In this document: piece after piece, positions 7,931-61,407 of the stretch
How positions within the stretch are numbered: position 1 is the first letter of the stretch
Layout of the letters: every line of letters starts with the position of its first letter
The notes under the pieces: model-generated
The model's input: only the letters and a program-made list of their open reading frames with translations
Database searches by the model: none
Told to the model about the DNA's origin: nothing
Position numbers and translations under genes: made by a program
Assembly (NCBI RefSeq): GCF_021462225.1
Contig: NC_061817.1
Coordinates: 3,842,751-3,906,750, forward strand
DNA: 64,000 nucleotides
Reading direction: 5' to 3'
Source: Girardinichthys multiradiatus
Lineage: Eukaryota > Chordata > Actinopteri > Cyprinodontiformes > Goodeidae

Positions 7931-7970
7931 CAACAACACCGTGAGGAAGCTACCATAACAGTTCTGAAAC

Positions 7971-8330
7971 ATCTCTACCAGACAGGGAACAAAGCCTCTA
8001 GGGATAAACTGCAGTTTTGTAAGGAGAAAGTGATTTATTTATTATTTATTTATTTATCATTTGGGAAATAAGCCAATATTACCAAAGAATTTATACAAGA
8101 CATCGGCCCATGCGACACACGGGGTTTCCCATGTGTCGAGAGGGGGAATGATCTCTACCAGACAGGGCACAAAGCCTCTAGGGATAAACTGCAGTTTTGT
8201 AAGGAGAAAGTGATTTATTTATTAATTATTTATTTATCATTTGGGAAATAAGCCAATATTACCAAATAATTTATACAAGACATCGGCCCATGCGACACAC
8301 GGGGTTTCCCATGTGTCGAGAGGGGGAATG
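7971..8330. repeat. 180-bp tandem duplication inside ERV1 pol
   Basis: The segment starting ATCTCTACCAGACAGG at 7971 recurs at 8151 with few differences. Each unit contains a TTATTTATTTATT low-complexity stretch and the GCGACACACGGGGTTTCCC block. It occupies the site where RT thumb and RNase H coding sequence would be expected, so it probably marks a rearrangement joining RT to integrase. Confidence 0.9.
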
Positions 8331-40204: not shown

Positions 40205-40512
40205 GGTTTATCGGTCGGGCCCATACAAACTTTCGTTGTCCGATGAGCTAACCCCTCCCTCCTACTTCCCTATGTCTAAAGGGATTGCTCAATCCAGCTC
40301 TCCATCCAATGGTTCCAGACTTCCCTAAACCTGAAAGATCTTACTAAGCAGGTTTACTGAAAGTTCTGTTTAAACTGGTGTCGGGAAATGACTTGCCTAG
40401 CCTCTGACAGCCTTCATACAAAAGTCTCGCCCTTCTTCAACTGGAGGTCTGGACGACTGAGTAGCCCACTGCAGTCATTCACACCTTCAACAGTCACTTT
40501 TGTTCATAGTGC
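40205..40512. other. Unassigned junction sequence
   Basis: Non-coding DNA between the ERV2 integrase start and the LTR-like repeat at 40513. No motif recognised. Confidence 0.4.
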
Positions 40513-40766
40513 TGCTCATTCCCTAATTTTACAACTGGCTTTTGGTATATGGGCTAGGTTAATTTTAGTGGATCGGCACAAGCCCCAAGGGCGCTGTTTT
40601 AACAAACTTGGCTAAGGCAACCTATAAAAATATCTTAGAACCAGGCAACAATACTTTTTACCACCAATGGAAAACCAAAAATACAGTGACTAAAATAATT
40701 GAATGTCCACGATTTAACTAGAATTTTATATGCTTTGTTTAATTAGTAACGCTTTTGCAGGGGTCA
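40513..40766 (-). repeat. LTR-like terminal direct repeat, copy 1 (3' end of the macro-domain element)
   Basis: 254 bp match 61145-61407 in the same orientation with about a dozen substitutions and one 9-10 bp indel. On the minus strand it starts TGACCCCTGCAAAAGCG and ends GAATGAGCA (TG...CA), with ACATATAAAATTC as a possible TATA box. Sequences differ outside the repeats on both sides, as expected for LTRs. No target-site duplication or convincing primer-binding site was found. Confidence 0.65.
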
Positions 40767-40869
40767 GGATCTTCCCAGATGTAAGTGATGATGGGGAGAT
40801 ACATTCCCCCTTGCTGTGTCTTTATCCTAAAAGTGTGCGCAGCAGCCCCGATGTCCAGGTCACCTTGTA

Positions 40870-41743
40870 TCATGTCTGAAGAGTTTGGCTCATGGTCATG
40901 GAGATATAGAGAAGATCCCCAGGACCCTCAATGCAGAAAACACTTGTCACTGTAGCATAGTCGACAGCGATAGAGAGACAGTGGTGACACCAGTGCCCCT
41001 CAGGCGTAACCCACAGGTATCTGAGCACTGAAGCTGAAATTCCACATTTGGAACAGGAGACTGTGTCCTGGAGAGATAAATGGTAAATGGACTGAACTTA
41101 TATAACGCTTTTCCAGTCATACAGACCGCTCAAAGTACTTTTACACTAGAGCCACATTCACCCAAGTGCACTCACTAACGCTCACACATTCATACACCGA
41201 TACGCAGATCAGTAGGCAACTTAAGGTTAAGTGCCTTGTCTGGGGGCACATCGACATATGGGAGGAGAAAGCTGGAATCGAACCCACAACCTTCTGATTG
41301 CAAGACGACTACTCTTCCTACTGAGCCACAGTATATATTGGAGACCTGTAAGTGGATTTTTCAGGAACATAATGTTGACCCTGGATAAAAAAAAACTAAA
41401 TGAAGAGACTGAACTAATTATAGAAGCATGCGTTCTAGCGGGCAAAAATCAGACTGTAGTGCTAGACTACTTCTCTGTTTCGTCTCTGGGCGGCCAGCCA
41501 AGGGGAGCGAAAAAGTGGAGGTTGAGTGTCACTCGAAGAGGACAACACCACTTCCCATCTGCGTATCCAGAAAGGGCCAAAGATTAGATTAGCATATCCT
41601 TGAAGTACGATGAGAAACCTTAATGGTTGGTTGACCGACCAGGACCCGGTGTGGCAATAGCATAGCCATCCACAGAGAAGCGCATAAAACTCCACTGTAC
41701 TCACTTGGACAGGCTCGGAGAAAGTGGTGGAATTGGTACTCAT
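40870..41743 (-). pseudogene. Small ORF downstream of env, with four-Cys ribbon, split by a SINE
   Basis: The first part starts at ATG 41743 (MSTNSTTFSEPVQVSTVEFY) and runs 93 codons to a stop at 41462, with several hydrophobic and aromatic stretches. The SINE follows. Past it, at about 41068-40870, an open frame of 66 codons contains CSKCG...WCHHC, a four-Cys zinc-ribbon spacing, and ends at TGA (40872-40870). Whether both parts were one gene is inferred from position only. A TATA-like box lies 88 bp upstream of the ATG. The position after env resembles that of accessory genes in complex retroviruses. No homology recognised. Confidence 0.45.
41078..41335 (-). mobile_element. tRNA-derived SINE
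   Basis: Read on the minus strand the head contains a tRNA-like A box (TGGCTCAGTAGG) and B box (GGTTGTGGGTTCGATTCC) near 41260-41335. The body runs to the end GTCCATTTAC at 41078. The body (TATATAACGCTTTTCCAGTC on the plus strand) is a common fish repeat. No clear target duplication seen. Confidence 0.75.
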
Positions 41744-41830
41744 GATGATAAGCGACTGCAAAGGCTTAGGCTCAACTGCTGTCTTCAAACCCAGAACTCA
41801 GAGTGACTCAAAACTCCCCAAGCCCTGGGT

Positions 41831-41836
41831 CTTATA
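41831..41836 (-). promoter_or_regulatory. Possible internal TATA box upstream of the small ORF
   Basis: GGGTATAAGACCC on the minus strand lies in a GC-rich context 88 bp before the ATG at 41743 and just past the end of the env cytoplasmic tail. Complex retroviruses such as foamy viruses have an internal promoter in about this place. This is a motif only; no initiator or expression evidence. Confidence 0.35.
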
Positions 41837-41871
41837 CCCGGGGTGGCCCCTCCCTCAAGGGGAGCGGCTGA

Positions 41872-44093
41872 TAGCTCCTCCTTCCTGGGCTGAGCATGGG
41901 CCGAAGAAATTGTTGCTCAAAGACTTTACATATTATGACTACAATAATCACTCATACAGCAGCAAGCAAATAAGGCCAAAGCATCATAAACAAATTAGCG
42001 ATCCAATCTTCAACTACTGAAACCCCTTCCCCTATAATATGTCTGGCTTCCTGGGCAACTGTAGTGACTACATTGCTGACTGAGTGTCCTAATGTCTCAT
42101 ACCAACTACAAGCATGCTGATACGGTCGTTCCCCACAATTCTTCCAGGTTTCTTTAGGTGGCTTACATGTGAGGTTGGAGTAGAAAAGATTATATCCTAC
42201 CCAGTCTAAACCCTTATCTATGCTGCCAGAGCATAAATGCTGTCTGAAAGCATACAATTCGCCTAGAGTAATTACTGAATTAGGAATGAAAGGCACAATA
42301 ACATTCATGATGCTTTTCCAATGCCTGAGATTGTGTCCCAGTACGGTCTCGGCACAGGTCGAGCCTCCACTGAGAGATCTTCTCCACATTCCTCCAATTT
42401 CCGTCCACACAACTTCATGTGCATAGGTGTTGTATGTTATCATAATGGGATTGGCATAATTCAGTCCAACCTGTGAGCTCTTGGCAGGGTCTGCGGTCAA
42501 GGCCTATGGTGCACTGAGTACGGGCAGTGTTACACTCCATACGCCAGGGTCTTGGGTGAACAAATCTTTCTGGTCAATAGAAGGGTTGCTGCCAAATGTC
42601 TCGCTCTTTGGAGTAAATCGTTGCTAAATACTGGTATTTAACCCAGTAGTTATCAGTCTGAGACAAACAGGGAATAACCCATTCTTTAACTTCATACTCC
42701 TGCAATCTCCACCAGGTTCGGGACCAGTCTCTGCTGTGTCCTTCAGCCCAGGCCTGCAGGAGCATCTTTGCTGTTTTGATTTTACTTAAGATGGAGCAGT
42801 CATATCGCCATGTTGACATGACTGAAATGTCAGCTTGCCACAGGTCACATCGGGGGGAAGCTCCATTGCTTGACCACACAGAGTTGTTAAGACTGTCAAA
42901 AACTTGTTGTGCCACACATTGGTCAATTTTATGAAAATCTCCTGCCGTTACATTCAATAATTTGTCTGGCTTAGGTAGTTTTTGGACATACATATTTGCA
43001 TAATAAGGTCCTTTCAAACCTTCATGTGTTCGGCTTTCACCCTCTGGGAAGTCTCCTTTGAAGTGGGGAACACCATAAGCCTTCCATACTCAGGGAAACG
43101 TCATGTTCAGCCATTCTTCATGTTCAGTCCAGATGGTTTTCGACCAGGAGGTTATGAAGGAGAGGTAGGCTCGATGAGTGTAAAGAGGGACTAAGGGCAG
43201 ATAGTTCTGAGTGCGGCATTGAGTGAATATGTTCCAAAAACAGCCGGGCAAATGTCTGAGCTTGGTATTAATACATTCCTGCAGGGCTTCTCGATTCCGA
43301 AAAGCCAACGGATAATTTGTACGGTCTATGGTTGACGAAGTGTTTTTAGGCCTTGGAGTGTCGGGAAGGCGTGTGCGATTCTGCGCTGTTGCGTTGGATC
43401 CTCTTGCGGGGGATGACAGGGCTCCAGTCGGTGTGGTTGCTGGTGTGCTGGAATGCGTCTGGTTCAGTGGACACATTCTCCTCACAATTTAATTGATATT
43501 TCCCCCAAAATTCCCAACGGGGAAACCAGGCTGGGCAAGTCACAACTCTTGAAGGAGCCCTGTGGATAACTTCAGGCTCCCAGTAACCGTGGCCTTTAAA
43601 CTGTACTAAGGGCCGACAGGCCCAGTCGCAGTGCCACTCCGGGACTCTCGATCAGGGTGAATCCAATTGCAGCAAATCGTACTGCGGACGAGTCGGTGCA
43701 GGATTTTCACCCTTATTATTACTCCTTCATCAGTGAGTTCAAGGTTGGAGATTGACTGGGTGGGATTGACAAGTTGTTGGGTCGTGGAGTCGTTTATCCA
43801 TGTTGGGTTTCTCTGTATAACCTTCTTTAGTCTGGTGAAATTGGTTTCTTGGCTTTCACGAAAGAACACAGACTGGTTCTTTAGGGGAGGGTGTTCTGTC
43901 CAAGGCAAAAAGACGTTCAGAGACGTTGTGTTCCAGCAAGTTTGGTTGGCATATTTTGAAGGACCATGAGCGACCTTAACATGGGTTAAGTTGCATGATC
44001 CCACTCCAGTTTGGTAAAGTATAATTAACAAAAGAACGATGCCAATAAGCAAAGCAAAAAGCCTAAGCAGTCTTCAAACAAGACGCTTTATCC
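41872..44093 (-). pseudogene. env: Env-like glycoprotein of the macro-domain element
   Basis: Remnants of a protein of about 700 residues. The N-terminal hydrophobic helix (LLIGIVLLLIILYQTGVG) is at about 44052-44000, preceded by a basic stretch. It is followed by many Asn-X-Ser/Thr sites, Cys and Trp residues (frames 43606-44052, 43346-43485, 42574-43017), then a TM-like half (41952-42500). The TM anchor begins NLFMMLWPYLLAAV and is cut by an in-frame TGA at 41954-41952; the hydrophobic stretch and a short tail continue beyond it. Frameshifts lie near 43620, 43090 and 42540. It lacks the CX6CC and CxxC motifs of ERV1/ERV2 and is a different Env type. Family not identified. Confidence 0.65.
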
Positions 44094-44099
44094 GTGATC

Positions 44100-44390
44100 C
44101 GTTTCCATAGCTTGGGTCAAGTAGAGGGACTTGTGTTGTCAGGGTCGTCAGAAGGCTCTTCGTCTTGGGCATTAAAAGCAGCTAAATAACTGAGAGGAAT
44201 CATGTCCAAATGAGTCTCTGGCATGGTTATCCTCGGGAATAGCCTGCTAATTCCAGTTGATCTGCTTCTTCAGTTCTGTCCACTCATCCTTTGAGCAGGG
44301 TTTGATAAATGGGTAAGGCAATCCAGGTTCCAACCCCTTCCACACCCACGTCCACTGGTAGACTATCCAGTAGTCAGATTTTACCTGTGG
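44100..44390 (-). pseudogene. C-terminal end of the ORF upstream of env
   Basis: Just left of the Gypsy insertion the minus strand reads an open stretch with an aromatic segment (SDYWIVYQWTWVWKGLEP) and, after a stop, an acidic tail (AFNAQDEEPSDDPDNTS) ending 6 bp before the region of the env start. It is probably the continuation of the ORF at 51660-52498 across Gypsy. Function unknown. Confidence 0.4.
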
Positions 44391-44410
44391 TCCTGCAAGA
44401 TTCTTCTCTT

Positions 44411-44708
44411 GCAACATTCATACCAACTTTACTAAATGAATCCATGTTTCAATGCAACCCACACAGAATATATTCACCAAAACTGTCACAGCATCAGGCT
44501 CCTGGCTAGCTCGCCATAACTATAACGCATAAAGACTAGGCAATTTGACTGGGCTACAAATGCAGCATCAGAAGAATGTTATTTGAAAGAGCCTGAGGGG
44601 TAAAAACCAAGAAGCAGCAAACTCAGTTTTAGTTTTAGTTTTGGTGCATGTATTAAAGTGACTGGTGCAGATAACAATACAATAAACAAAAATGGATTGA
44701 GTGACAAA
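44411..44708 (-). repeat. Gypsy 3' LTR
   Basis: Read on the minus strand it starts TTTGTCACTCAATCC and ends ATGAATGTTGC. It matches 51354-51645 almost throughout. It carries an extra TTTTAG unit near 44630. Confidence 0.85.
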
Positions 44709-45631
44709 GCTCAATTCAAAGTCCATCAATATAAGTTCATAATTCTAGCTCGCCATCTATGAATCCAGGTGAAGAATCTTGTTCAAAAAAAAAAACCCTA
44801 CCTAAAAGGTCAGAAACATACATTAAAGATTTCATTCCATTTAAACATTCAATGCATGAATACATTTATGCAAATTAAAAGTCACTACATTTTTCATTTC
44901 TAAAGTCCCATGTTTGTTATATGACTAAATCATGATTTAAATAGTAACTCGTGTAAATCAGAAACATGTTTCAAGTCAATCAAGCTAAAGTGCACTTTCA
45001 ATAATACTAAACTGACACTGAATGACCAAAGTTACTCAATATCAAATTCAATATCACATTTAGTAGGACAATAAAATATTGCGCTACATTAAGTTTTAAT
45101 TAAGTGTAATTATATTATTTTCCATCAGCATACAAAACCTCATTGCTGTTTCAAAGTCAATTTAAAAAAATACCATAACATACATGAAATGTAACTAGGA
45201 CACCAAACAACAATTGTGATGCACATATTAAACCTTCATCTATAATTCGGCTTCCATCACACATTAACAGAAACTTGTTTTACCTTTTCAATGGAGTAAG
45301 GGTGACTTAACTTCATGCACAGCCGAATGGATATTTACAGCAACCATGCCAATGGAGTTTGGAAGATAAATCGCCGCCAGTTCTAGTAAAACAACAGTTC
45401 GGTAAATAATGACACGGTCCATTTAAGCATAAAACAATATTGCTACAATGTGCTAAAGGACTCACCATGCCATCGAGTTTGTATAAAGCACAGATTTTAC
45501 AATCTGTTCGAGACACGCCAACAGAGCACGCCACAGCCACAGTGAAGACGGACCCGGAAGTTTCCTATGACCCATGACTTTAAGGAAGCTGAACAGAAAG
45601 GTGTTGAGCCACGCAAAAGTTAGACATCTGA
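44709..45631. other. Gypsy 3' untranslated region
   Basis: About 900 bp of AT-rich non-coding DNA between the pol end and the 3' LTR. Frames are short and without motifs. No env-like gene is seen. Confidence 0.6.
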
Positions 45632-46938
45632 CTAAACACGGGTTACAGGTTCCCCCCCTAAACTTGTGTACGGCCTTGTACATGCCAGTGGCTGATGACA
45701 TACTGCCCTTTCACAAGAAGTAGCGGTCACAACAGTGTCCTCTAATTGCAAGGCAGAACTAAATGCAGTACTAAATCCTTGGAAAAGGGACTGGACGCTT
45801 TGCAGGAGTGAATGCCCAAGTGTCGTATACTTTAGACGGTTAGGTGGCCGACCTGTTCTAGTGGAGCGTCGGACGGGCAAGTCTGGGCTGGAGAGTTCAG
45901 GAGCAGTAGAGTCGCTTACAATGTTAAGTGGCTCTGGAATTAGTGCGAGTTCTTGTTGGGAAGAAACAGTTTCCTCGAGAGACTCCGACTCAGTTTAACC
46001 TGTACTTCCTGCTTCCAGTACAATTAATACTTGCTCAGGTTCAGCAATAGATTCTGGTCCAAACTCTCGTGCCTGTTCCACACCAACAGTTTTGTCCATA
46101 AAGCTCTGTGAACGCTGGCCAGGCGGGAGCACAGGAATGATTGTAGGTGCAGGAGCAGGTAAGTCAATCACAGTTGTTTTTCTGATAAGACAGGAGTTGG
46201 AGTAATCAGATAGATCAATTGTAAACTGTTCTTGTTCTTCAGAATCTGAAGGTTCTGGAGTCACTGGGGGTGCCGTTACTGATGTTGGTTTCAACTTTTT
46301 TGGTTTGGAGGCTGGTAACAAGTAGCCACAAGGCAACAGCAGATCACGGTGCAATGTCCTGATGGGATGATCTTTACCCTCTGGTTTAACTGTATATACT
46401 GGAAGAGTGCCGGCTCTCCTCTGGACAATATACACATCTGGCTCCCACCGGTCTGCGAGCTTGTGCTTGCCTCGTAGCTTGACGTTTCGAACCAGGACTC
46501 TATCCCCAGCTCTATCCCAACTAATTTACAGAGCTCTTTGATGGTGTAGGATTCAAAACCGGGCCCTTGGTCGCTATGGAGATGCTCCGGAATTCCATAA
46601 TGAACCAAGTAGTTGTCCCATATCGCCTTTGCTACCGTCTTAGCTTTCTGATTTGGGGTTGGCATGGCAACAGCATATTTTGTGAAATGATCAGTCATCA
46701 CAAGCACATTCTTGGTGTTACTTTGGTCTGGTTCTATTGAAAGGAAATCCATACAGACAAGTTCAAGTGGTCTTGAGGTTCTAATGTTGACAAGGGGCGC
46801 AGCTTTCTCAGGTTGTGCTTTTCTGCATACACATCTCTCAAAGTTCTTAATTTTATTGCAGACATCAACTGCCATTTGCGGCCAAAAGAAATGTGATCTA
46901 ACAAGGTCCAGTGTTCTCTCTATACCCAAATGACCCAT
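45632..46938 (-). pseudogene. Gypsy integrase, core truncated
   Basis: 46938-46291 starts with the zinc-binding region (MGHLGIERTLDLVRSHFFWP, then CVCRKAQ) and the core with MDFLSIEP (first Asp) and HSDQGPGF (second Asp). After LCKLVGIE the sequence jumps into the C-terminal domain in another frame, so the catalytic Glu segment is deleted. 46435-45995 holds the C-terminal part (PVYTVKPEGKDHPIRTLHRDLL). 45880-45632 has the typical Gypsy pol end RRSTRTGRPPNRLKY. Confidence 0.88.
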
Positions 46939-47127
46939 CTGGTCGTGAAGCTGGTTGAGGACCTCTGGCCGACATTCTTCTGGAAGAACAAGTTGATAAG
47001 TAAGTTCACCTCCAATATTCCGTCTCCTGACAAGAACATTATTATGGAACTCCAGACATGTAAGCTCTCGCAGGAGTAAGGGCAGATCAGGGAGCTGTTC
47101 CCTCAGGGAGGGTGGTGGATTTTCTCC

Positions 47128-49272
47128 TCATTCCAATTGAGCAACAATGTGCTGAATAACGGGGTCGGCTCGTTGTTTGTCAGCAATTTCAGCATCAGAG
47201 AAGGAGCCCACTACAGGGGAAAAGAACTGCAGGTCATTAACAAATCTGTCTGGTAGGCTGTTCGTGTCAGCAGAAAGTGTTTGTACCAAAGCAACAATTG
47301 GTTGGTCTGGATCAGGTGAGCTGTACACCAGTTGTCTGTCACATACTGCTTGGACTGACTGCTGATCAATTGAAACACAAGATGGAAGTTCGAGATGTTG
47401 TTCAGTAAATTTCAATATTCTTTCTCTCTCCTTTTGAGTCAAAGGATCCTCCAATTTTTCAGCATGAGACCATCAGCATCCGCATTCAACCTGCCAGCCC
47501 GATAGATGATTTTAATGTGAAAGTTGAGAGAGCAAAAGCCACCTGTAACCTGTTGCATCCAGTTTAGCAGAAGTTAACAGATATGTCAATGGATTACTAT
47601 CCGTAACCACAGTAAAACTGGATCCATACAGGTAGTCATAGAATTTCTCTGTAACTGCCCATTACTGCCAAAAAACTCAAGTTTATGGGTAGGATATTGT
47701 GTTTCACTCCGTGACAAACCTCTACTGGCATATGCAATCACCCTGTTCTGCCCATCATATTCTTGATACAATACTGCGCCAAGGCCGGTAGAGCTAGCAT
47801 CAGTGTGAAGAATGTAAGGTTTGCCTGGGTCTGCAAAAGCAAGAATCGGGGCTGTGCTGAACTTCTGTATAAAGGTTCTTTGGGGTTTAAATAATGTTGT
47901 AGCTTCCCTCTTTGTTTGGATCTTTTCTGAGTGGGTGGATATCCAGCAGTCAAATCATTGAGTGGTTTGATGACTGAGGAGTACCCTTTCACAAACCTTC
48001 GGTAATGTCCCGCAAACCCAAGGAACGACCTAAGCTCTTTCAGATTTTGCGGAACTGGCCAAGATGTCAAAGTGTGTATCTTGTCTGGGTCAGTCTCCAC
48101 TCCATCCCTTGAAACTACATGTCCAAGGTAGCGAACTGATGTCTGAAAGAAAACACATTTGTCAATTGATAGTTTCAATCCAAACTCTTTCAGGCGTTGA
48201 AGAACTTTCATCAATCGGCGTTCATGTTCCTCTAAAGTCGGTGCAAATACTATCAAGTCATCAATGAACACAAGCACTTCTTTCAAATTCATATCTCCCA
48301 TACACCGTTCCATGAGATGTTGAAAAGTGCTAGGAGCATTAGTCACCCCTTGAGGCATGCGATTAAATTCGTAAAATCCAAGCAGACATACAAATGTAGT
48401 CTTAGTCTGTTTCATTCATTTCTATCTGGTAGTACCCAGATTTTAAATCTAGTGGAGAACCATGCAGAACCAGACAGTGCTGAAAATGCATCTTCCAGCT
48501 TCGGCAAAGCATAGGCATCCTTGATAGTCTGGTCATTCAATCTCCTATAGTCAATACAGAGCTGCACCGCTCCATTTTTCTTCCGCACCACTACTATGAG
48601 GGAAGCAAAAGGTGAGTTGGATTCACGTATGACTCCGGATTGCAACAATTCCTGAATATGCTCACGAACAGCATCCACATCTTGGGGGTGGATGGGCCTG
48701 GGTCTTTGCTTGAAAGCCGTGGGGTCTGCCAACTTTTTCTCATGCTTGACTTTGTCTGTACAACCAAAATCTAGATCATGGTTTGCAAAGACTTCTGACA
48801 CACTGTCAAGAATCGTTGTTATACGTTGCTTCCATTCAGCTGAAAGCGGTGAGTCTCCAAAGTTGTAATTCAATTTGATTAGATTTGGATCAGCACTAGG
48901 AGAGCATTGATGCACACCAGGCTCTTTATGGAGAATAGTCTGAATGGTACTGACCTCAGCGACAGCTGCTCTGGCAGGAATCAAAATGCTATGGTCGGAT
49001 TCATTGGTGATTACCACCAGCAGGAACGCAGGCTGAACTGGAGGTAGATCAACTAGACTGGATTTCACCATCAACCCACCAGGCAAGGGGAAAGAAGTTG
49101 GGTGCTGAATCATCACCTCTTTCTCACCTTGTAGAAAAGGACATATGATAGAAGCATCCAACACAACAGTCTGTCGAGCAGAAATAACTTGTGGGCTGGT
49201 AGACTGCATTTTAAGAATGCCATGATACTCATCAGTTGTTAACTTGTGTCTTAGCTCCAAAATATTATGCAC
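47128..49272 (-). pseudogene. Gypsy reverse transcriptase and RNase H
   Basis: 49272-48412 contains the pre-RT region and RT motifs KQRPRPIHP, SPFASLIVVVRKKNG and CIDYRRLNDQT. A frameshift near 48415 follows. 48415-47738 holds FNRMPQGVTNAPSTFQ and the catalytic box VFIDDLIVF (about 48257-48268; Phe in place of the usual Tyr), then the thumb GHVVSRDGVETDPDKI. RNase H remnants (YASRGLSRSETQYPTHKLEF) are at 47586-47771, again shifted. 47454-47128 is the linker before integrase. Confidence 0.9.
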
Positions 49273-49275
49273 TGC

Positions 49276-49718
49276 TCAATACCTAACAGCTACAGGACAG
49301 AAGTCAGGCTGTGATTCACAGCACTGGCCATACACAACATCCAGAGTGTTTGTACCAATCAGAATGGGAGGCTGTGATGATCGCAGGTCTGGAACGACCA
49401 AGGCTAAGGTGCTGATCTCCATAAATTCCCCTATAAACTCAGGCAGAAATGTTAAACAAAGTTCAACATATCCAATATAAGGCACCTTCTGCCCATTTGC
49501 ACCTTCGATCTCCAAAAGATCACTTAATGACTTCATGTTATGGTCTGACAGGTGGGTATTATAGAAGGAATGTGAAACTGTGGTGACCTGGGAACCAGTA
49601 TCAAAAAGGCAAGGAAAATTGGTCCCTTTAATTTTAACCTCATCTGTACTTTTTGTGCCCACCAATCCTCTTGGTAGTGGGAACTGTTTAGTTGAGTACT
49701 TGGTATGGGGACATTCAT
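49276..49718 (-). pseudogene. Gypsy aspartic protease
   Basis: The active-site triad lies in CLFDTGSQVTTV, with a downstream ILIGTNTLD segment as expected for the second conserved block of retroviral-type proteases. It would cleave the Gag-Pol polyprotein. It lies between gag and RT and ends just before the RT frame. Confidence 0.85.
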
Positions 49719-49757
49719 CAGTTGCAGCTCCTACTTGTCCCTCAGCAAGAACTGCTT

Positions 49758-51363
49758 CTAGTTTAATGGCTTCCTGTCTTCCCAGGACTCCTGTTTTTGT
49801 TTCAGTTGGTGATGTTTTCCCTCAACCAAGCTGGCGTTACGCTGACTGGAACAGTTTGGAGCAATATGACCATCTTGTCCACATTTAAAACAGAACCAAG
49901 GCTTTTGCCTATTGCTCATTTGGCCAGGTTTTGCTTTCTGTTTTTTCGGCTGGATTTCTGGTTTAACAGGATTGGAATCTTTGGATAACAACGTCGACAT
50001 CTGCTTCTGCAGCTTCAGCATTTGCCTCCTCAAATCCTCGATATCACTTGGATCAGAAGAATGGCCACATGAACATGCACTGCTGGTGTGACTTTGCAAG
50101 TTAACACGGTGCTTGACTGTTGGGATATGTTTTTTCATCAATGTCTCTTTTGCCAGTTGTCTATCTTCTTCTGTTCTGAGTGTAAATAAAAGCTCCAGGA
50201 AAGAAGGTGGTTCGTCTTTTTTCTTTTCTAGTTGCAGTTTGTTTATCATGCTGTTATCCCAACACCCTCTGCAAAATTGCTTTAGCAAATATTTATCCAT
50301 TTCAACTGCTGGAATCCCACCACGCTTCACCACTGTACTGAGAGCCAACTGGAGTCTCTGCAGATATGAAGATGGTTGTTCCCCCTGATCTTGAAGCGTG
50401 TTTAAAAAATTTTCAAACAGCTCTCCTCGATCCTCCGCAGTGGCGTATGCAGAATCAAGTACCTGCAAAAACATTGCAGGAAGGACATTGGGTCCCAAGC
50501 CTTTCACCAAGTCAGCAGCCGGAGGGAGTAACCCTTCCAAGATGCGTCTTGTAATATGTAAAGGTACTAGATTAGGATCGGCATTTAAAAGTTATATTTG
50601 GGCTCTCCAAGAGTCATAATCAGCTTCATGCTGTGGTTTGGGAAGCTTCCCTGAGAAAGTGCGCAATCTATACAAAGACGGGGGTTGAGAGTTCACATCA
50701 TCTTTGCGCACAATGTGTTCAACTACCACCCTCTGTATCTCTGAAGGATTAATATCATCTCCTGAAAGAGAAATTCTTCGGCCCACATTTGTGGCTGAAT
50801 TTGGCTGGAGTGGCGGTCCTTGCTGATCAGTAAGAGACTGACCTGCTTGTTGCAAGGGAACAGCGGATTGCTGAGTTTGACCGGCCTCCCCAGCAGTGGC
50901 AAGAATTTCCAACGTGTCCTCCTCTTCACTATCCTAAACATGCTCCCCCCCACTGGCCGCTAATCCCAAATGTGCACTTATTTGTTCAAATACTCCTTTC
51001 AAAACATCTTCAAAACGATTGGCCACCCTGCTGGGAAATGCGTCTCAATTCATGAAGGAAATCTGGCGGTGGGGAAGCCCTCACTGTAGCTGCGGCAGCA
51101 CACTCACTCGAGAGTAATTTAACAATAAATTCAACATCTTCTGCAGCATGAGATGAATAGGTATATGGCAAAAGCGGTTATAGCTGTTCCAACGCTGCAG
51201 TATTAATAAATTCAACAGCCAGGTTTTTATAAAATGGAATCTCACGATCAGTAACAAAAAATTATTTTTTAACTTCACCATAACTGCGTAAATAATTGAT
51301 GATCTCATCATCTGCTTGAGTGTTTGTTGCACCACTAATGATGACAGAATGAGCAACATTCAT
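49758..51363 (-). pseudogene. Gypsy gag, PNMA-like, with CCHC zinc knuckle
   Basis: The N-terminal part (from ATG 51363, inside the end of the 5' LTR) reads IINYLRSYGEV and FYKNLAVEFINTAALEQL, with stops. The capsid-like core lies at 50912-50592 and 50540-49900 (LYRLRTFSGKLPKP, RRILEGLLPPAADLVKGLGP, FLNTLQDQGEQPSSYLQRL), matching the PNMA capsid style. A single CCHC knuckle CFKCGQDGHIAPNC (about 49842-49883) is near the C-terminus. Stops at about 50590 and 51270 and a frameshift near 51000 disable it. It would form the retrotransposon capsid and bind its RNA. Confidence 0.87.
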
Positions 51364-51645
51364 ACCAACTTTACTAAATGAATCCATGTTTCAATGCAAC
51401 CCACACAGTATATATTCACCAAAACTGTCACAGTATCAGGCTCCTGGCTAGCTCGCCATAACTATAACGCATAAAGACTAGGCAATTTGACTGGGCTACA
51501 AATGCAGCATCAGAAGAATGTTCTTTGAAAGAGCCTGAGGGGTAAAAACCAAGAAGCAGCAAACTCAGTTTTAGTTTTGGTGCATGTATTAAAGTGACTG
51601 GTGCAGATAACAATACAATAAACAAAAATGGATTGAGTGACAAAT
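51354..51645 (-). repeat. Gypsy 5' LTR
   Basis: It matches 44411-44708. The gag ATG (51363) falls within the last ten bases of the LTR, an uncommon arrangement that leaves no space for a normal primer-binding site right after the LTR. Confidence 0.83.
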
Positions 51646-51659
51646 GGGACTACAACCAT

Positions 51660-52498
51660 TTGCACTGCCAGTTGTACCCTCTGGGTGGGGCCAGGGTCAG
51701 TGGGTGTGTCTGTCCAATGAGCCACAGTACCTGGAATCTGTAGCACCCTATCGCGATGCCAGTTTTCAGAGGTTATGATGAACTCTCCCACCTTCTGTTT
51801 GGGTCTGGCTCCATGGCTGCCCCGGGCATCTAAACTGGTGGTGTAGTAGTATAGCCTTGTACCCCGAGCACCCCTTTCCTTGGGAGTGTCGGGCAAGTCT
51901 TCCAGGGGGAGGTCTGGATTTGCAACAACTTCTAATATTAACTGTCCCCAGGTTGTCAACTCCCAGGGCCCAACCATCCACTTGGCTATGCCTATTGTTC
52001 TTCATTGTTGGGAGGTTGTTCCAGTGCAGTGCAGACACCCTCGTGACCCTGGTCTCTATGCACTCGGAACACCAGGGGATACTGTGTGGTGGTTAAAGGT
52101 GGGCGGCTTACCTGGCCAGAGGCTGGATCATATGGCCAGGACTCCCTGATTGATGCTGTCAGCAGATCTGTTGGTCCCCCATCCAGACCACTCTGGGGAG
52201 AGTGGTGATTCGGCACCCCCCACAAATGAAGATGTCCGTTACCTTGACGGGCTTGTATGGCAGTTTGTCTAACTCATCGCCACCGGTGTTGTGATGTAGT
52301 GGTTTCTCTCATCCTTGTCCTGCCCAGCGGACTTTGAGCTGACTTGGGCCCATGCAGATTGCGCAACAGTTCTTGACCTCTCGCCACCACAGCATTTCAT
52401 CTTCTGTTGACAGGAATCCTTTTTTAGCAAGTTCCAATTTCTTCAAGGCTCTTCCTGCCCAAAGCCCTGAAGTGGTTCTTCGAATGGCAACCACCCCA
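51660..52498 (-). pseudogene. Cys-containing ORF of the macro-domain element, part after the ISL2EU insertion
   Basis: The minus-strand frame 52494-52309 directly continues the frame at about 57688-57590 once ISL2EU and one TA are removed. It contains KNCCAICMGP and, after a TGA near 52306, a CGGC pair, which together could form a four-Cys zinc site. Further on, frames 52038-51510 show polar sequence (ERGARGTRLYYYTTSLD, KQKVGEFIITSENWHRDRV) up to the Gypsy junction. No known domain recognised. Confidence 0.5.
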
Positions 52499-52598
52499 TA
52501 TAGATGCGTTTCAGGAGAATGATGTCATCACGCACGCTACCGCCATGTTGAGTACCGAACGCTAAGCTAAGCTCCATGGCGCTTTCTCTCAGACCAGA

Positions 52599-55418
52599 AT
52601 GGACCGTTCTCATTTAAATCCCCACGAACTTAAACGATACAACGAAAAAATCTCTGTTATTGGATGCGATCCTGCAGACAGTTTTCAACACCTTTCATCA
52701 ACTGACAGGCTTCCAGATCTTTCCTTCCACGACTTATACATATATCTGATACACAACCCGTCTTCATACACCGGGGAAAGTCTGAAAGCTTTTAAAAGCA
52801 CGGATGCCTATCGATATTTCACGGCTGGCTGGGTCATTGACCCGAAAATATGGTATCAGAAGAACAAGAAAATATTCTTGTGTAAAGCAAAGGTAAGTCG
52901 TGTTCTACTGATCTTTATGCTTGATGTAAACAGCGGCTGCCACTGTTAGCATTGCAAAGGGGTAAGCTAGGATCATTTAAATCATCCACTGAAACATAGA
53001 GCAGGACAAATGAGCAATGTAAGAGTGATGTTAAGGTCCTAAATAAACAATTTTGAAATTTCAAGGGGTGGGTGAATGAACATCAAGCTCCTGACTGTTG
53101 CAAAACGTCACATGGGGGGGAGAGGGGTTCCGAGTACCTGAGGTTAATGTTGTATTTGTCCCAAGAAAGTTAAAGTCTTACACTCATCTTGATAAGTATT
53201 TTCTAGTTCTACTTTACTAATAGATCACATTCTTTAACTTCAGGTGAATCACTCTCAGGCCATAAATGCCGCACCCACACAACCCTGGGTTGTTGTCAGA
53301 GAGGATGGGACAGTGCTAATGGCTCACTGCACCTGTAAAGCAGGATTGGGTGAAGCATGCTCCCATGCAGCCGCACTGATATATGCACTACTGGCAGCAG
53401 TCAATGTCAAAGATGGACAGTCCAGCACTCAGAAGGCCTGTGCCTGGGTCATTCCAGGCAAAACATCTCAAATCTAGTATGAGGAACTGAGCAAAATATC
53501 AATGACCAAGAAGAATAAATCAAAATCCACTACAATGCCCAGCATTCCTGTCCCTTCAGTGGATGAATACATGAGGTTCTTCCAACAGCTACACGAGTGT
53601 GATGTCCAGGAAGGAAATCCCAACGGAACGGCTATTTTGTCTGTCACTCTGACAAATACATACCAAAGACTGTCCAACTGAACTTGCCACAACCTCTGAC
53701 AAGTCTCTTCTCTAATGCAAGATTACAAGCAGATTTATCATCACTACAGGTAGAGAGTGAAAAGGTCTTTGATGATCTTCAGCTAACGGAAAAATAGGTA
53801 TGTACATTGGCTGTCTAATTCTTCACTAAATTTGTAAAGCACTTCCTTATTTTTTATATTATTGGTATACTGAATAAGATTACTACACTTTTGGTAAAAG
53901 CTTCTGGTAAATGCATATTGGGTAAGTACTGGTATTAAGTATACTATTTGTACTTTGCTTAAAACAAGGGTCTGCAACCTAAGGCTCCAAAGCCACAAGT
54001 GGCTCTTTGGATCTTCCACAGTGGGTCTTGATAACATAGGCTAAAAATAAAAAAGAACCAACTAATATTTTTTTTTCCTGAAGACCTTTTTTTGTGGCTC
54101 TAAACGAGTGTTATTTAGCTGGGCCGAGGGCAAATTTGGATCGTAAAGGTTGCAGACCCCTGGCTTAACACTAATATAAACAGATGTATCAACATTAAAA
54201 ACTGCATTTAACTAATCTTCAGTGTTCAAAACATCTTGCAATCATTTTCAGTAGAAAAGTCAACTAGAGAACAGTCAGCCAGCAAGGTGTGGTTTGAGCA
54301 AAGAGCAGGCAGAGTAACAGCATCGGTCTTCCATGAGGCAGGCAGGACGGACAGTGCCATATCCTTGATTAAAAGGATCTGTTACCCTCGATCCTGTCAG
54401 GTTTCTACTGAGGCAGTGAGGTAAAGACAGAAGTGCATATGGAAAGGCTACATAACCAACCAGGTTTACCCAGGGTTGGTTTTTATTTAATTTTTAAGGG
54501 ATATTGCAGAATAACAAAGTTATTATCATTACACTTCAAAGACTTAAGTGATGCAAGCTCAAGATAAGATCCCAGTCCTAACACTTCCACTATTTCATTT
54601 CTGCTCTGTCGAAAAGTCAGGTAATTACACAGTTAGATATATGTATACAATGTATAATTAGATCATGTTTGCATAACTGCTAATGCACAGGTTTTAGATG
54701 TGAAGTAGTAAACTCTAGGTTGTGATTGTTGTAAGTAGGAGTCAATCTAATTCATGTGTAACATAATTTTTCTAGATGGGGAAATCTAAATGAGCCAGTA
54801 GCAAGGATACATTACATCAAAGCGTTGCAAGATCATCACACAGATTTCCAGGTGACAACAGCAGGCCTCATCATCAACACATCTTTGCCATGGATCGGTG
54901 CATCGCCAGATGGAATCATTACATGTGTCTGCCATGGTAAAGTTGTGCTTGAAATAAAATGTCCCTTTATCTTCAAAAATAGCTCTCTTGCCAACAGCTG
55001 TAACACTGACACAAACATCTGTCTAGTGGAAAAGGACAATGTGATGACACTGAAGACAAATCACAAATACGTGTCACAAGTTCAAGCCCATATGCGTATT
55101 GCAGGTGTACAGTTTTGTGACTTTGTTGTGTGGAGTCCCACTGAAATGTTTATACAACGCATTCAGTTTGATGACTTGTTCTTCAGTGAGATGTACAGCA
55201 GAGTAGTGCAGTTCAACAAAACTAGACTTCTGCCAGAACGTTTGGGAAAGTACTACACGGTACCACGCATAGTGGTCTCCCCAATCTCAGAGAAACAGCC
55301 ACATTCAGGATGCTACTGTGGTGAACCACAAGGAGCTCCAGAGGATGTAGTCATCTGCGCATCAAAACTATGCAAGCGAGGACATTTTCACAGGTCCAAA
55401 AGTGTGGAAATGTTATGA
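52599..55418 (+). pseudogene. ISL2EU second gene: SWIM zinc finger + YqaJ nuclease-like protein, four exons
   Basis: Exon 1 is 52599-52892 (98 codons, donor AG|GTAAGT). Exon 2 starts 53244 (acceptor TTCAG) and carries the SWIM finger CTCKAGLGEACSHAAAL. Exon 3 is about 54235-54424 (donor GTAAAG). Exon 4 is 54776-55418 with the YqaJ motifs WIGASPDG (Asp) and VLEIKCP (Glu-X-Lys), as in lambda-exonuclease-type recombinases. A TAG at 53475-53477 and a frameshift near 53650 in exon 2 break the protein. ISL2EU elements carry this protein beside the transposase; its exact role in transposition is not settled. Confidence 0.85.
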
Positions 55419-55627
55419 ATGCAGGAAGATAAAGCAAAACTGAGGAACTACACTGTTATGCAACAGACATTGTACAAACCTAACATAACAAAAAGATATT
55501 CAATAATATTTAGCCTAAGGTTTTGTTTCCTTTTGTTCTGATGCCAGAGTTTTCCACTTATAAACATGGTGTCATTCCAGTAATCCCACTTTGCGTTATT
55601 TTCCATCTAAGTCAAAAAACCTTATTA

Positions 55628-57500
55628 TTAAGGTACTGCGATTGTCTTGTGATCTTTTAAAGTTGTGTTTAACCTGCCTTCTTTATTCCCTATTGTTCTT
55701 ATTCTAATGATATGGATGCGCATTGCTGTCAGTCCTCTCGATGACTCGATTTCTTCTGGGTGAAGCTGTGCTTTTCCTTTGGTAAAGGCAGGTATCTTGA
55801 GTTGTGCATTGACAAGTCCTACAGAATCTGCTACATTAAACCCTCTGTCAGCAAGAACCACATCCCCAGGGGACAACAGGTCAAGATATCCACTATGCTC
55901 TGTCACATACTTATCACTTGTCCTACCACCCCAACCTTTTGAAACAAAGCTAATGACCCCTTGTGGTGTTATGGAAATGAGATACTTAACTGTATTATGA
56001 TGTTTATATTGTGAATAGGTTTGTGCACGTGCTGTCATCTCTTTAGGTCTTTCAATAAATATCTCAAAGCAGTCAATAATACTAGTGCAATTTTTGAAGT
56101 TTTTTCTGTAACACATGGGAAGACTAATTAAAATCTGATCTCTGCTTGGCCACCTTATAATATTACACAGCCGGAAATACATAACATTCAGTGTGTTGTT
56201 GAAAACCCTACTAGCAGTTGATGTTGATGTATGAAAACAATGACCTAGGAAAAAAAGTGGTAAATTCATTCTCAAGCGCATTAATGTTAGTAAAAACTGC
56301 TGAAAAGGTGACAAACATGACTTAACATTAAGTAATGGTGATATAAAAGAGAATACAACAATCAATTTACAGTAAGAAGGCAGGCCAGTTAACTTATTGA
56401 CTTTCTCATCTTTGCCTTGGAAACTTTCTTTACTGAATGTCAATGAATCTACTTGACCCTTGAGTTTACAGATTTCAGTCCTTAATCTCATACATTCTTC
56501 ATTGAGTCTTTTAATTGTGACTTGGCAAGAAGCATTGGTACAGGAACCATCCATCGCCAATCCAACATGTCTGTCTTCTCCTCCATCCTGCTGGTCATCA
56601 TCATCCACCTCTTGTCTGTCTTCTCCTCCATCCTGCTGGTCATCATCATCCACCTCTTGTCTGTCTTCTCCTCCATCCTGCTGGTCATTGCCATCCACCT
56701 CCTTTCTGTCCTCTGCTTTTCCTGTCTCTCCTCTGTCAGCATCAATCACTGCTCTTTTTCTTTTTAGAGCCTGAGTGTGTTCAAACCTGGCCATTTGATA
56801 AATCCTCTTTCGCTTGTTTGGAGAACTTAGATGAGGAAATATTGTTGGCACGTAGTCTGGGCTTAGTGGGTTTTGGCTTTTTGCACCTGATGAGACAAAG
56901 GATTCAGTTAATGTAACTAGGTCTGTGTCCAAAGCATCTACAACGAAGAAACCAGAGAAATGAAATATCTTCCTAGGTTAATCTAAGATCAGCACAATAT
57001 ATCATCAAGCTTATTAGCTTGTAATACTGTAAGTTTTCAACTTTTGTTGCTGTATATTTTACTGTCATTATGTTGCGTAAGTTCAATTGAATGTAATGTA
57101 AAAATACTACATTAATCTCAAAGATCCCGCTGTAGACAGATATCTAAGCTAACAACTGCAATCTCTGAAGCAAAATATTCAGATCTTCATATCAAATGCA
57201 TTTGTTGCACACGGTGTCAAATCAGTTTCATTCTAATCACTTAATTTTCTGAAAAATATGTTCAAGACATTAAATCCAGTTGGCAGTAGCTTGAGCTAGC
57301 TCTCCTGACGTGGTTTGAAACTCACATGATACAAAATGTGCACTGCACAGACGGCTACTTGCAGTCGGCGTCCAGTTAGCCCTCCTGATCGCTGACAGCC
57401 ATCTCTGACGATGTTCTTCCTCTTTCGGTAAGCGATAAAAAGAAATATTTGGGTCACCTTTCTTATAATCACACCCGACTGCACAACACACGGATGGCAT
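55628..57500 (-). CDS. ISL2EU transposase: THAP finger + DDE (Harbinger-like) nuclease, two exons
   Basis: Exon 1 (57500-57326) encodes a THAP zinc finger starting MPSVCCAVGC and ending CSAHFVS; the donor GTGAGT follows. The acceptor TGTAG precedes exon 2 (56937-55628). The one leftover base of exon 1 and two bases of exon 2 complete a codon, so the frame is kept, for about 495 residues. Exon 2 has a nuclear-localisation-like KNKRKR-type stretch, three tandem 15-residue acidic repeats, a coiled coil (IKRLNEECMRLRTEICKLKG), a helix-turn-helix segment (STSTASRVFNNTLN), and DDE residues in IIDCFEIFIERP and VVLADRGFNV. It would bind the terminal repeats and cut them. No stop or frameshift is seen, so it may be functional. 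MPS was preferred to the upstream Met at 57521 because THAP domains start there. Confidence 0.85.
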
Positions 57501-57589
57501 CTTCGACGACAGGGGCACCAAAGAAGGTACTCAATATGGCGGCGGCTAGAGTTCGATGAATGTGTGACGTCAGCTGCAAGGCATCTATA

Positions 57590-57863
57590 CAGTGGCCAGT
57601 CTGATGTAGGGTGGCATGGTGCTTGGTTCACTGGCCATCCCTCTGGTTTCTGGTTATCCTTAGCTGAGAATTGGCTTGAGCTGTGCAACTCCTTGGATCC
57701 CTCTCTTCTGTAACAACACCGTGTTACGATCTAATTCTTGCTTCACAATGTCAGTGGTATCGTACTTGGGTTTCACTGCTGTCGACACAGGGTGATCTCG
57801 TCCCTCACGGAATGGCACCTTAGGCGTTGGCTTCCTTGTTTTCTCATTGGAGCTCCGCCCCAT
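57590..57863 (-). pseudogene. Cys-containing ORF of the macro-domain element, part before the ISL2EU insertion
   Basis: A frame from ATG 57863 is basic and polar (MGRSSNEKTRKPTPKVPFRE) and ends ...LKPILS at a TAA near 57660. The overlapping -1/+1 frame takes over and runs open to the ISL2EU border, where it joins the frame at 52494. No domain recognised. The 200 bp between this ORF and the macro ORF contain stops and may be an intron or a decayed segment. Confidence 0.45.
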
Positions 57864-58063
57864 TTTTTGTGAAGATAATGGTTGTTGGTTGAGTTCTGCT
57901 GCAGGGGAGGGCCTACTGACTCAATGTCTGTCATTCAGTTCTTGCCCTATTTCTACAGCTTTGGTGCTCCAGTCACGAGAATTAGCGTTTTTTGCTATCC
58001 AGTTTTTCACCAGACCTGGTGCGTTCCATCACTCCGTTCACGGCTTTTCTTTCACAGACGGCT

Positions 58064-59960
58064 CTAAGGGTGTTTTCCTGCTGGCATTTTGGCAAAAGCG
58101 ATCTCTCCTCTCCTCCCTTTAGTTACTTCTCGGAGGGCCTTCACATATCTAGCTGGTGAGATTGTTTGCTTAAGCACATGCCACACCAGTCCAAGGTGCT
58201 GACCTCCATCCATGTACAGTCTTGCTCTTCTGATCTGGGAGTCTTCATCATCCATGTCTTCCAACACCAACCTCTCATAATGGCTTTGAGCTGTTCCTTG
58301 TTTGTCTAAGGGATGTGCTGTTACATGGCTCAGCCACAATTTTTTAGCTTCGTCACTTTCAGTAGCATTGGTAATCATCGGCCACACATCTTTGATGTAA
58401 ACTTCACTACTTTCTTCTGATCTTTTCTCTCTAACTAAGGTCTTGATCTTTTTGTACTTATGAAAAACATCAGCTTCAGGGCTGGATGCCGTGGGTTGTT
58501 CAGACATTTTCCCTATGGGCTTGCTTATGGAGCGTGGTGCTGACCGCAGTGGAGGTTCTTCCTCGGCTGACAGCTCATCAACCTGTCGCTCGATCTCTTG
58601 TGTATACTTGTATGCTGCTTTCTTTAGTCTTCTTAACATCACATCTCCATCATAAGCAGATCTGAACTTGCTGGTCAGGGGCTGATAAGTTGCTAGGGTG
58701 TGGTAGGATGGCATCATTAGGATGTTGGCCCATTCCCCAACTGTTGCTTTTACCCTGAGTTCGACTTTGTCAGCCCATACAGCTGGGATGTCATAGTCTC
58801 TCTGTCCAGCTTCTGGTATGTACGCTCGACGCCCATCATTCGCTTGAACCGGCCCCCATGTCAGGTCTCTGGCCATTCTTTCTGAGACCCGGTAGATGTC
58901 AAACACTTCCCCTGCTTTCTTTTCTCCTTTTCTCTGTCCTACTTTGATTGGCTTGTGAGGGGTTGCCTGCTGCACTTGGATTGAAAACAGGCTTTCACTG
59001 TCATCACTCTCTGCCCCAGAGGTCTCATATTCTGATGGTTCTTCTTCTTCCGAGCCATTGATTTCTCTTTCTGGGTTCAAGGGCTCCATTTTAAATGGAC
59101 TCAGGAGCTCCTCTTGAGCTGGACTTTGTTTTATCTTTTTCTTTGCTTTTAAATCTTTTGTTGGAACCAGCTCTGTTTTATCTAGATCTTCCAGGCTGCA
59201 ATTAGCTAGGCTTATTTCCACAGCCTGCACGGAGGTTGAAGGGGCAGCTGCGTCTTTCTTTGCTGATTTTGGTCTTTTCTCCAGGCGGGACACTTGGTTG
59301 GTCTCACTCTTGTGCAGGTAGCATTTTTCATCAAGGTGTGGTTTGATTTCACTCCCTTGTTTGATTCTTGATATCTCTAATTGAGGAGGATCTTTCGGCT
59401 TCTTCTCATCCATCCTTTCTACTAATGTCAGCTCTCTCTTCCTCCGACTCTCATGCTGGCTAAGGGACGTGATGATGACTATTTTGGCCAGTGAGGCATC
59501 TGTCAGCAGATTCTTGACTACATGGTGTGCTGTTGCAATGGCTACTTTTTCTGCTGACTCCCATGGCAGGTTATGCGATCTCAGTCCGTCTAGGCATATT
59601 GTTACCCTTCTCAGGCCGTGGTTGATGGCAGCATTCAGTCCTTCTTCCAGGGCTAACCACATTTTCTCTCTGTACTCTTTCAAGTCTTCTCCCTTTTTGT
59701 AAGCGGCAATGGGAGAGTGGATGACAGCATAATAAGTGAGGTCGGCCCCACTAGTCAGATGCACTTTGTTTGCTTTGTTCTGGCTCACTTGTCTCCTCGG
59801 CTCTCGAACCTCTTTTTTGTAATCTTCCCCTGCCTGGGCTCTTAACCTTTTCCTGAATTTGGTATGGTGGATCTTGAAGTTGTCATTTGTGAAAACTAAC
59901 AGTCTCCGTCTCCCTGTATGTCCCAGGGGTCTCCGATAACTTGGTAGAGTCGAGTCCCGT
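58064..59960 (-). pseudogene. Macro-domain protein of the LTR-flanked element
   Basis: The macro fold runs from about 59960 to 59462. Its first strands lie in the preceding frame (TRLYQVIGDPWDIQGDGDC, stop at 59896-59898). It continues after a one-frame shift with LLVFTNDNF, RLRAQAGEDY, KVHLTSGADL, YYAVIHSPIA, a helix LEEGLNAAINHGLRRVTI, HNLPWESAEKVAIATAHHVV and the last strand KIVIITSL. These match the order of conserved macro-domain strands. The Gly-rich loop that holds the distal ribose is replaced (KIHHTKF), so activity is doubtful. A long acidic Lys/Glu/Ser-rich linker follows (59450-58950), then an unrecognised C-terminal region of about 290 residues (from DIYRVSERMARDLTWGP) ending at 58064. 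No homologue was recalled for the C-terminal region. Confidence 0.65.
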
Positions 59961-61151
59961 TTTGCAGGGAAATTTGACTTGCATCTGTGGGCATCAGGTC
60001 TAGGACTTTCCTCATCATGACTCTGTCTGACTTCTGACTAACCTTTATTGGCTCTTTTCCTTCAACATCTGTCTTTCCTGTCATTCTGAGTTGGTTACTG
60101 GCACTATTTTCTTTGGCTTCTTGTTCAAATTGGAAGGTAAGGTCTCTTACTTTACTTTGTGTGGGGTCATGCTCCATGTGGTTTGGGGTGTTGGCTATAC
60201 ATTGGAGGTTTCCCTTATGACGCTCGAAGGCTGCTGATAAGAGGGCTCCCTGCCCAGCAGTCTCTTGCAGTTCCTGTCTGGCCTGAGCAATCCGTTGAAG
60301 GATGTCACCCTTCGGCCTTGTGATGTATGGGATAATAGTTGGTCCTTGGCTGTGTTCAGCTTTCTTTGGTCTTGCTCTTGTTTTGACTCGTTGCCCTCTT
60401 CTTCACTCTCTGTTTCTTTTGTTAAATCATAAGTTGGTATCTCTGGGTCAGCTCTGTGGTATTTTCTTTGATCCGGTCTGCCATACTCACTACACTCCTC
60501 AAGCAAACTCTCTTTGTCGCCATCTTGGATGGCTCCAAGCTTTTCTTTGAACTGTGTCATTTTTCTGGTATCTATTTCATACTCTTTCAACCTTGCCGTG
60601 GCTCTGGCGGTGGGGTTTGTGAGGTACCCGTTCTGTCCAGACTCGCTGGAAACCATTTTTACGATCGGGTCATATTTTTCGGATGGACTGTACAGTGAGA
60701 TCAGCTTCCCTGGTCCCCACTGTTCAAGGAACCCTATCCACCAGCGTAACCGTCGACCAATGTCTTCCTTCCTCTGGACTGCCTTGGGGCATGGTACCAT
60801 GACCAGTCTAAATCCATGTTTTATCTCTGAACAATAGTATACTTCATCTCTTTGGAGGTGGTTTGTTAGCTGACTCTCTAGTGCTTCTTTCGATTGCTCT
60901 TATTTGAAACTGAAGAACATTTTCTTTACCGATGAAGCCCATGTTGAATATCCATCCCCACCTAGCAGCACCTCGGTAGGTAAGCGGTGTAGCTCTAACT
61001 GTGTTGATGTCAGTTGTTCTGTTGACGGGAGTGATCCATCAGCTCCCCGCTCCGTCCATTTCTGCGTTTCAATCTCTTCGTCCATCGCTATGTGTTTGTC
61101 GTCTTGAGTTGTCCGTCTCCACGGCTGTTGTCCGTCTCCACGGCTGCTCAT
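59899..61151 (-). pseudogene. Charged N-terminal ORF of the LTR-flanked element (Gag position)
   Basis: The frame begins with ATG 61151, whose first seven bases are the last bases of the direct repeat. 61151-60900 encodes polar sequence ending YSTWASSVKKMFFSFK and a TAA. The same frame restarts and runs to 60195 with RLVMVPCPKAVQRKEDIGRR, LRWWIGFLEQWGPGKLISLY and a Glu-rich stretch (TKETESEEEGNESKQEQDQ). 60177-59899 follows in another frame and leads into the macro domain. Its position next to the 5' repeat is that of gag, but no CCHC knuckle or capsid homology is visible. The start of the frame contains an 18-bp tandem duplication (CCGTGGAGACGGACAAC twice). Confidence 0.45.
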
Positions 61152-61407
61152 TCCCTAATTTTACAACTGGCTCTTGGTATATGGGCTAGGTTAATTGTAG
61201 TGGCTCGGCACGAGCCCCAAGGGCGCTGTTTTAACAAACTTGGCTAAGACAACCTATAAAAACCTCCTAAAATATCTTAGAACCAGGCAACAAGACTTTT
61301 TACCACCAATGAAAAACCAAAAATACGGTGACTCAAATAATTGAATGTCCATGATTTAAGTAGAATTTTATATGTTTCTTTAATTAGTAACGCTTTTGCA
61401 GGGGTCA
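61145..61407 (-). repeat. LTR-like terminal direct repeat, copy 2 (5' end of the macro-domain element)
   Basis: 263 bp match 40513-40766, with an extra AACCTCCTAA near 61262. Minus-strand ends are TGACCCC and ATGAGCA. The bases following it on the minus strand (GCCGTGGAGACGGACAAC) do not clearly match any tRNA 3' end, so no primer-binding site is called. Confidence 0.65.

What the first reader, a model, noticed from the sequence alone, without database searches (positions are those of the whole stretch)
40513..61407. LTR-flanked element combining a macro-domain protein, an unusual Env and a Cys-ribbon ORF, with no polymerase
Two ~260-bp TG...CA direct repeats bracket a minus-strand set of ORFs not matching any retroelement I can name: a charged N-terminal ORF starting inside the repeat, a macro-domain protein, a Cys-containing protein, a glycoprotein of unfamiliar type and a small zinc-ribbon-like ORF. 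Macro domains are known in alphaviruses, coronaviruses, hepeviruses and cellular ADP-ribose-processing proteins; I know of no described retrovirus or LTR retrotransposon carrying one. If the unit is real, it is a new kind of Env-bearing element that may have countered host PARP-type ADP-ribosylation and used another element's polymerase, or lost its own pol. The parts are seen; the unity is inferred.
Basis: partly seen in the sequence, partly recalled or inferred. Interest (0 to 1): 0.92.

Follow-up and report, generated by a model that had tools for sequence, protein, structure and literature searches.

The report
Fish retrovirus relic with macrodomain Gag
This stretch of DNA, likely from a fish, is most likely the decayed remnant of a retrovirus whose capsid-type protein (Gag) contains a domain predicted to fold like the cell's ADP-ribose-binding macrodomains, and which probably lost its own polymerase gene through an internal deletion rather than having borrowed one.

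The parts
61143..61407 (-). 5' LTR-like direct repeat (265 bp)
40511..40766 (-). 3' LTR-like direct repeat (256 bp; has a 10-bp gap against the 5' copy)
60543..61085 (-). gag, N-terminal part (starts 57 nt after the 5' LTR-like repeat)
   Evidence: P0009 aa 1-181, 82% identity; P0006 aa 4-168; distance
59890..60366 (-). gag, middle part, running into the first strands of the macro-like domain
   Evidence: P0011 aa 62-220, 81% identity
59426..59902 (-). gag, macro-like domain (main part)
   Evidence: P0006 aa 382-542, E=2.2e-30; Pfam Macro 4.8e-6; fold of the P0014 equivalent
58064..59005 (-). gag, C-terminal capsid-position part, cut short (about the last 100 codons of the intact relatives are missing)
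   Evidence: P0006 aa 694-1012, 47% identity; alignment
57867..58016 (-). pol remnant: integrase C-terminal part with one in-frame stop; similar-looking reading goes on to about 57663 (by eye, no database match for that tail)
   Evidence: P0013 aa 918-967, 60% identity, 65.5 bits against at most 25.0 in 20 shuffles
51645..52300 (-). broken ORFs between pol and env, one with CxxC pairs; the position of FLERV accessory genes; identity untested
41952..44073 (-). env-like gene in frameshifted pieces: hydrophobic stretch near the start, sequons, and a hydrophobic run across the stop at the end (by eye)
   Evidence: goodeid relatives P0015-P0018, 89-93% identity
44411..51644 (.). nested Gypsy-like element (not part of the unit)
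54762..56977 (.). parts of a nested ISL2EU-type DNA transposon: YqaJ (+) and DDE transposase (-) (not part of the unit)

Best explanation
The 40.5-61.4 kb unit is most likely a decayed endogenous retrovirus whose single Gag protein contains a domain predicted to have the macrodomain fold, and whose polymerase gene was likely removed by an internal deletion that left only the end of integrase. Its ancestor likely worked as an ordinary infectious retrovirus with gag, a foamy-like pol and an Env of unfamiliar type. The macro-like domain lies between an N-terminal Gag region and the capsid-position region; because it is conserved in Gag but has lost the usual ADP-ribose-gripping loops, it likely serves as a structural or nucleic-acid- or ligand-binding module of the particle rather than as an eraser of ADP-ribose marks (inferred, untested). 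The copy likely integrated into an older retrovirus, lost most of pol, and took Gypsy-like and ISL2EU-type insertions (inferred from anatomy).
Against: No target-site duplication beyond chance; no primer-binding site recognised. Pfam Macro passes its cut-off in the window ORF only: P0014 0.083, P0006 none, and none listed for P0001 or P0011, which hold parts of the domain. The profile of three Gags found no PDB sequence. The capsid-region model is poor (pLDDT 56) and matched no capsid clearly. Env pieces match no family, and env and gag were not shown on one contig elsewhere. Only one relative, distant (P0013), has enough RT to classify. P0013 and the goodeid hits are automatic gene models that may splice across real sequence. 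The own-genome search did not complete, so copies were not counted.
Confidence: 0.82

Rival explanations
1. The Gag macrodomain is an active ADP-ribose binder or hydrolase that counters host PARP-type antiviral ADP-ribosylation, as in alphaviruses and coronaviruses.
For: The fold matches PARP14, PARP9, macroH2A and hydrolase macrodomains; such domains counter PARPs in other viruses (established knowledge).
Against: Patterns for the glycine-rich and STG-type loops are in 0 of 19 sequences scanned, while YmdB has both; in the alignment with YmdB they fall on a gap and on a DGLRS stretch. That alignment is at low identity and hhalign did not support it, and loops were not inspected in the model's coordinates.
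Confidence: 0.15
2. The unit is a non-autonomous element that never had a polymerase and used another element's enzymes.
For: No RT of its own was found between the repeats; the RT there belongs to the nested Gypsy-like element.
Against: Integrase remnant directly after gag on the same strand; relatives with the same Gag have a protease motif, RT and integrase.
Confidence: 0.05
3. The macro ORF and Env are extra genes of the surrounding retrovirus, as reported for fish epsilon-like ERVs, and the two repeats are dispersed copies of something else.
For: An RNase H part at 62874-63830 (best solved match a p80 RT/RNase H chain, recalled as MLV-type, 5.2e-54) and an integrase core at 39683-39976 (rve 6.3e-17) flank the unit on the same strand; a review reports macro ORFs in epsilon-like fish ERVs.
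Against: The one relative with a long RT joins this Gag to a foamy-like pol; the unit has its own repeats, a gag start 57 nt after one of them, and its own integrase end. The flanking integrase core itself has only weak solved matches, to PFV-type integrase (28.8 bits), so the flank's class is not settled.
Confidence: 0.08

Closest known systems
[quoted passage not shown] Aiewsakun and Katzourakis 2017, PMC5512871; passages and section 6 read)
   Same: Teleost hosts; Pol of the relative P0013 nearest to foamy virus Pol among solved structures; Gag and Env unlike those of mammalian foamy viruses; ORFs between pol and env; nested transposons and frameshifts.
   Different: Two full-length ones are described with genomes of about 17 kb and a tRNA-Lys primer site; here at most about 10.9 kb remains between the LTRs after subtracting the nested elements and no primer site was recognised. 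The passages shown to me mention no macrodomain in their Gag. FLERV proteins were not on hand for comparison.
Macro-domain ORFs in fish ERVs (Basta et al. 2009, known here only through PMC4977317)
   Same: A macro domain in a fish endogenous retrovirus.
   Different: Described in the review as additional ORFs of epsilon-like elements; here the domain is inside Gag, and a relative links that Gag to a foamy-like pol. The original paper is not held and was not read, so it may describe this same domain.
Rhinella marina endogenous retrovirus Gag (A0A2U9K508, BFVD)
   Same: Best viral fold match to the P0014 Gag model (E=1.3e-8, prob 1.00), ahead of the other viral matches listed.
   Different: Amphibian host, 873 aa; the tool shows no aligned ranges, so which parts match is inferred from TM-scores.
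Lokiretroviruses (PMC9040795, passages)
   Same: Vertebrate LTR viruses with Env unlike canonical retroviral Env.
   Different: Their Env resembles fusion proteins of Mononegavirales; the Env pieces here gave no such hit. RT trees could not be built, so the placement is open.
Cellular macrodomains (macroH2A, PARP14, PARP9)
   Different: 11-18% identity; loops that bind ADP-ribose replaced; embedded in Gag.

Membership tests
Endogenous retrovirus (LTR provirus) | paired terminal direct repeats | tested here: met
   244 of 267 columns identical
Endogenous retrovirus (LTR provirus) | gag, pol, env order on one strand, from an ancestor with its own pol | tested here: met
   gag parts, integrase end and env-like pieces in order; relatives gag to PR motif, RT, IN. 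No RT of its own found in this copy.
Endogenous retrovirus (LTR provirus) | target-site duplication | tested here: inconclusive
   candidate of a kind also found at 853 of 2000 random site pairs
Endogenous retrovirus (LTR provirus) | tRNA primer-binding site after the 5' LTR | tested here: inconclusive
   sequence read by eye; no tRNA gene in the window to compare
Ray-finned fish FLERV (spuma-like) | Pol in the foamy branch of an RT tree | tested here: inconclusive
   P0013 RT best matches foamy Pol, 198 bits against 96 next; no tree with FLERV, ERV-L, SnRV or loki references possible here
Ray-finned fish FLERV (spuma-like) | FLERV-type env | tested here: inconclusive
   no Pfam hit above cut-off for 5 of 5 env pieces; FLERV Env not on hand
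Lokiretrovirus | Env similar to Mononegavirales fusion proteins | tested here: inconclusive
   no such Pfam hit for 5 of 5 env pieces at E<=1
Macrodomain fold | three-layer macrodomain fold | tested here: met
   predicted structure of P0014; the window ORF passes the Pfam cut-off
ADP-ribose-binding or hydrolase macrodomain | glycine-rich loop 1 and STG-type loop 2 (motifs recalled, seen in YmdB) | tested here: not met
   (sequence level): patterns in 0 of 19 sequences, in YmdB yes
ADP-ribose-binding or hydrolase macrodomain | binding or hydrolysis of ADP-ribose | not testable with these tools
   needs purified protein

The most novel reading that the evidence does not exclude
A distinct retroviral lineage of fishes (and perhaps amphibians) built a macrodomain into Gag itself and kept it over deep divergence after stripping out its ADP-ribose pocket, turning a cellular signalling fold into a structural part of the virus particle.
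Probability: 0.4. Interest if true: 0.75.

Novelty: new variant of a known kind. Interest (0 to 1): 0.52.

Why it matters
The viral macrodomains I know of are mostly non-structural proteins that act on ADP-ribose. A macrodomain built into Gag would be an unusual addition to a retroviral particle and a test case of a captured enzyme fold reused for structure. The intact Gag ORFs in Siganus and in P0014 make this directly testable. It also shows how an apparently polymerase-less element can be explained by an ordinary internal deletion.

Full report
What is in the sequence. Two direct repeats lie at 40511-40766 and 61143-61407. Aligned, 244 of 267 columns are identical with 11 gap columns, that is 12 substitutions in 256 ungapped columns. 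With the fish neutral rate quoted in PMC5512871 (1.46e-8 per site per year) this would be about 1.6 million years, a borrowed rate and a rough figure. On the minus strand the N-terminal gag reading starts 57 nt after the 61.1-kb repeat. A Gypsy-like element (44411-51644, LTRs 96.98% identical over 298 bp) and parts of an ISL2EU-type transposon (YqaJ; DDE transposase) are nested inside. Subtracting these from 40767-61142 leaves at most about 10.9 kb for the unit between its LTRs.

One Gag, not three ORFs. A search with the macro ORF found 13 proteins, all from fishes, among the 7996 candidates scored. P0006 (Siganus canaliculatus, 1138 aa) aligns to the window in order at 61046-60579, 60003-59911, 59902-59426 and 59005-58082. 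P0014 (1120 aa, unnamed contig) is 40% identical over 99% of P0006 and was the only other protein found with P0006 as query. Gene models in Crenichthys join the same parts: P0009 covers 61085-60543 and 58978-58439, and P0011 covers 60366-59890 and 59902-59171. So the window's N-terminal ORF, the macro ORF and the part after it are one gag broken by frameshifts.

The missing polymerase. Right after the truncated gag, 58016-57867 matches the integrase C-terminal region of P0013 at 60% identity, 65.5 bits; 20 shuffled queries reached at most 25.0 bits, run without composition adjustment. P0013 (Anarrhichthys, 967 aa) has part of the same Gag (43% over 153 aa), RVT_1, RNase H-like and rve domains and a spumavirus protease match below its cut-off. 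Its RT's best solved relatives are foamy virus polymerases at 198 bits; next 96, Ty3 84, MLV 66, HIV about 42 bits (some virus names recalled from entry codes). P0005, P0007 and P0010 continue from Gag to a DTGA motif, and P0004, P0005 and P0010 to the RT start. The simplest reading is one internal deletion from late gag to late integrase; the junction was seen, the event is inferred.

Env. Five pieces at 41952-44073 carry a near-N-terminal hydrophobic stretch and sequons, most of them in two of the first three pieces (6, 2, 5, 2 and 1 per piece). The piece 42574-43089 has four goodeid relatives at 89-93% identity among 8 candidates, and P0017 spans two pieces. Pfam gave nothing above cut-off for 5 of 5 pieces, NCBIfam nothing for 3, PDB sequences nothing meaningful for 1. 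That it is an Env is inferred from anatomy and position.

Surroundings. On the same strand, 62874-63830 is a connection/RNase H region closest to MLV-type RT (5.2e-54; name partly recalled), and 39683-39976 an integrase core (rve 6.3e-17) with weak PFV-type solved matches (28.8 bits). The unit therefore likely sits between RNase H and integrase of another retrovirus; that both flank parts belong to one element is inferred.

What is known. A 2016 review (PMC4977317; passages, the ray-finned fish section) says fish epsilon-like ERVs occasionally include macro-domain ORFs (citing Basta 2009, not held). PMC5512871 (passages and section 6) describes ray-finned FLERVs whose proteins, apart from Pol, show no strong similarity to mammalian foamy viruses. 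PMC9040795 and PMC10996621 were seen as passages. Hence: a new variant of a known kind, with the Gag-embedded, pocket-less macrodomain as the unusual part.

Noticed in passing
62874-63830(-), 39683-40207(-), 38230-39288(-): Parts of another retrovirus (RNase H, integrase core, and a 352-aa ORF in env position without a Pfam hit) flank the unit on both sides, so one retrovirus is likely nested in another.
   Followed up: partly
62143-62229 and 62570-62705: Stretches upstream of the 5' repeat whose relatives also sit next to gag or env fragments in goodeid gene models P0011 and P0018; dispersed repeat or shared neighbour, not resolved.
   Followed up: partly
1834-2595(-), 9461-10453(-), 17858-18790(-): Three transposase ORFs with DDE_3, Tc1/mariner-type by recall.
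   Followed up: no
7428-9074(+) and 14829-15722(-): A further retroelement with RT-like and integrase matches (rve 1.5e-18) and an RVT_1 fragment.
   Followed up: no
P0012 (Girardinichthys multiradiatus): A database gene model fuses a fragment of this Gag to an adenosine receptor A1-like protein; gene-prediction artefact or exonised Gag.
   Followed up: no
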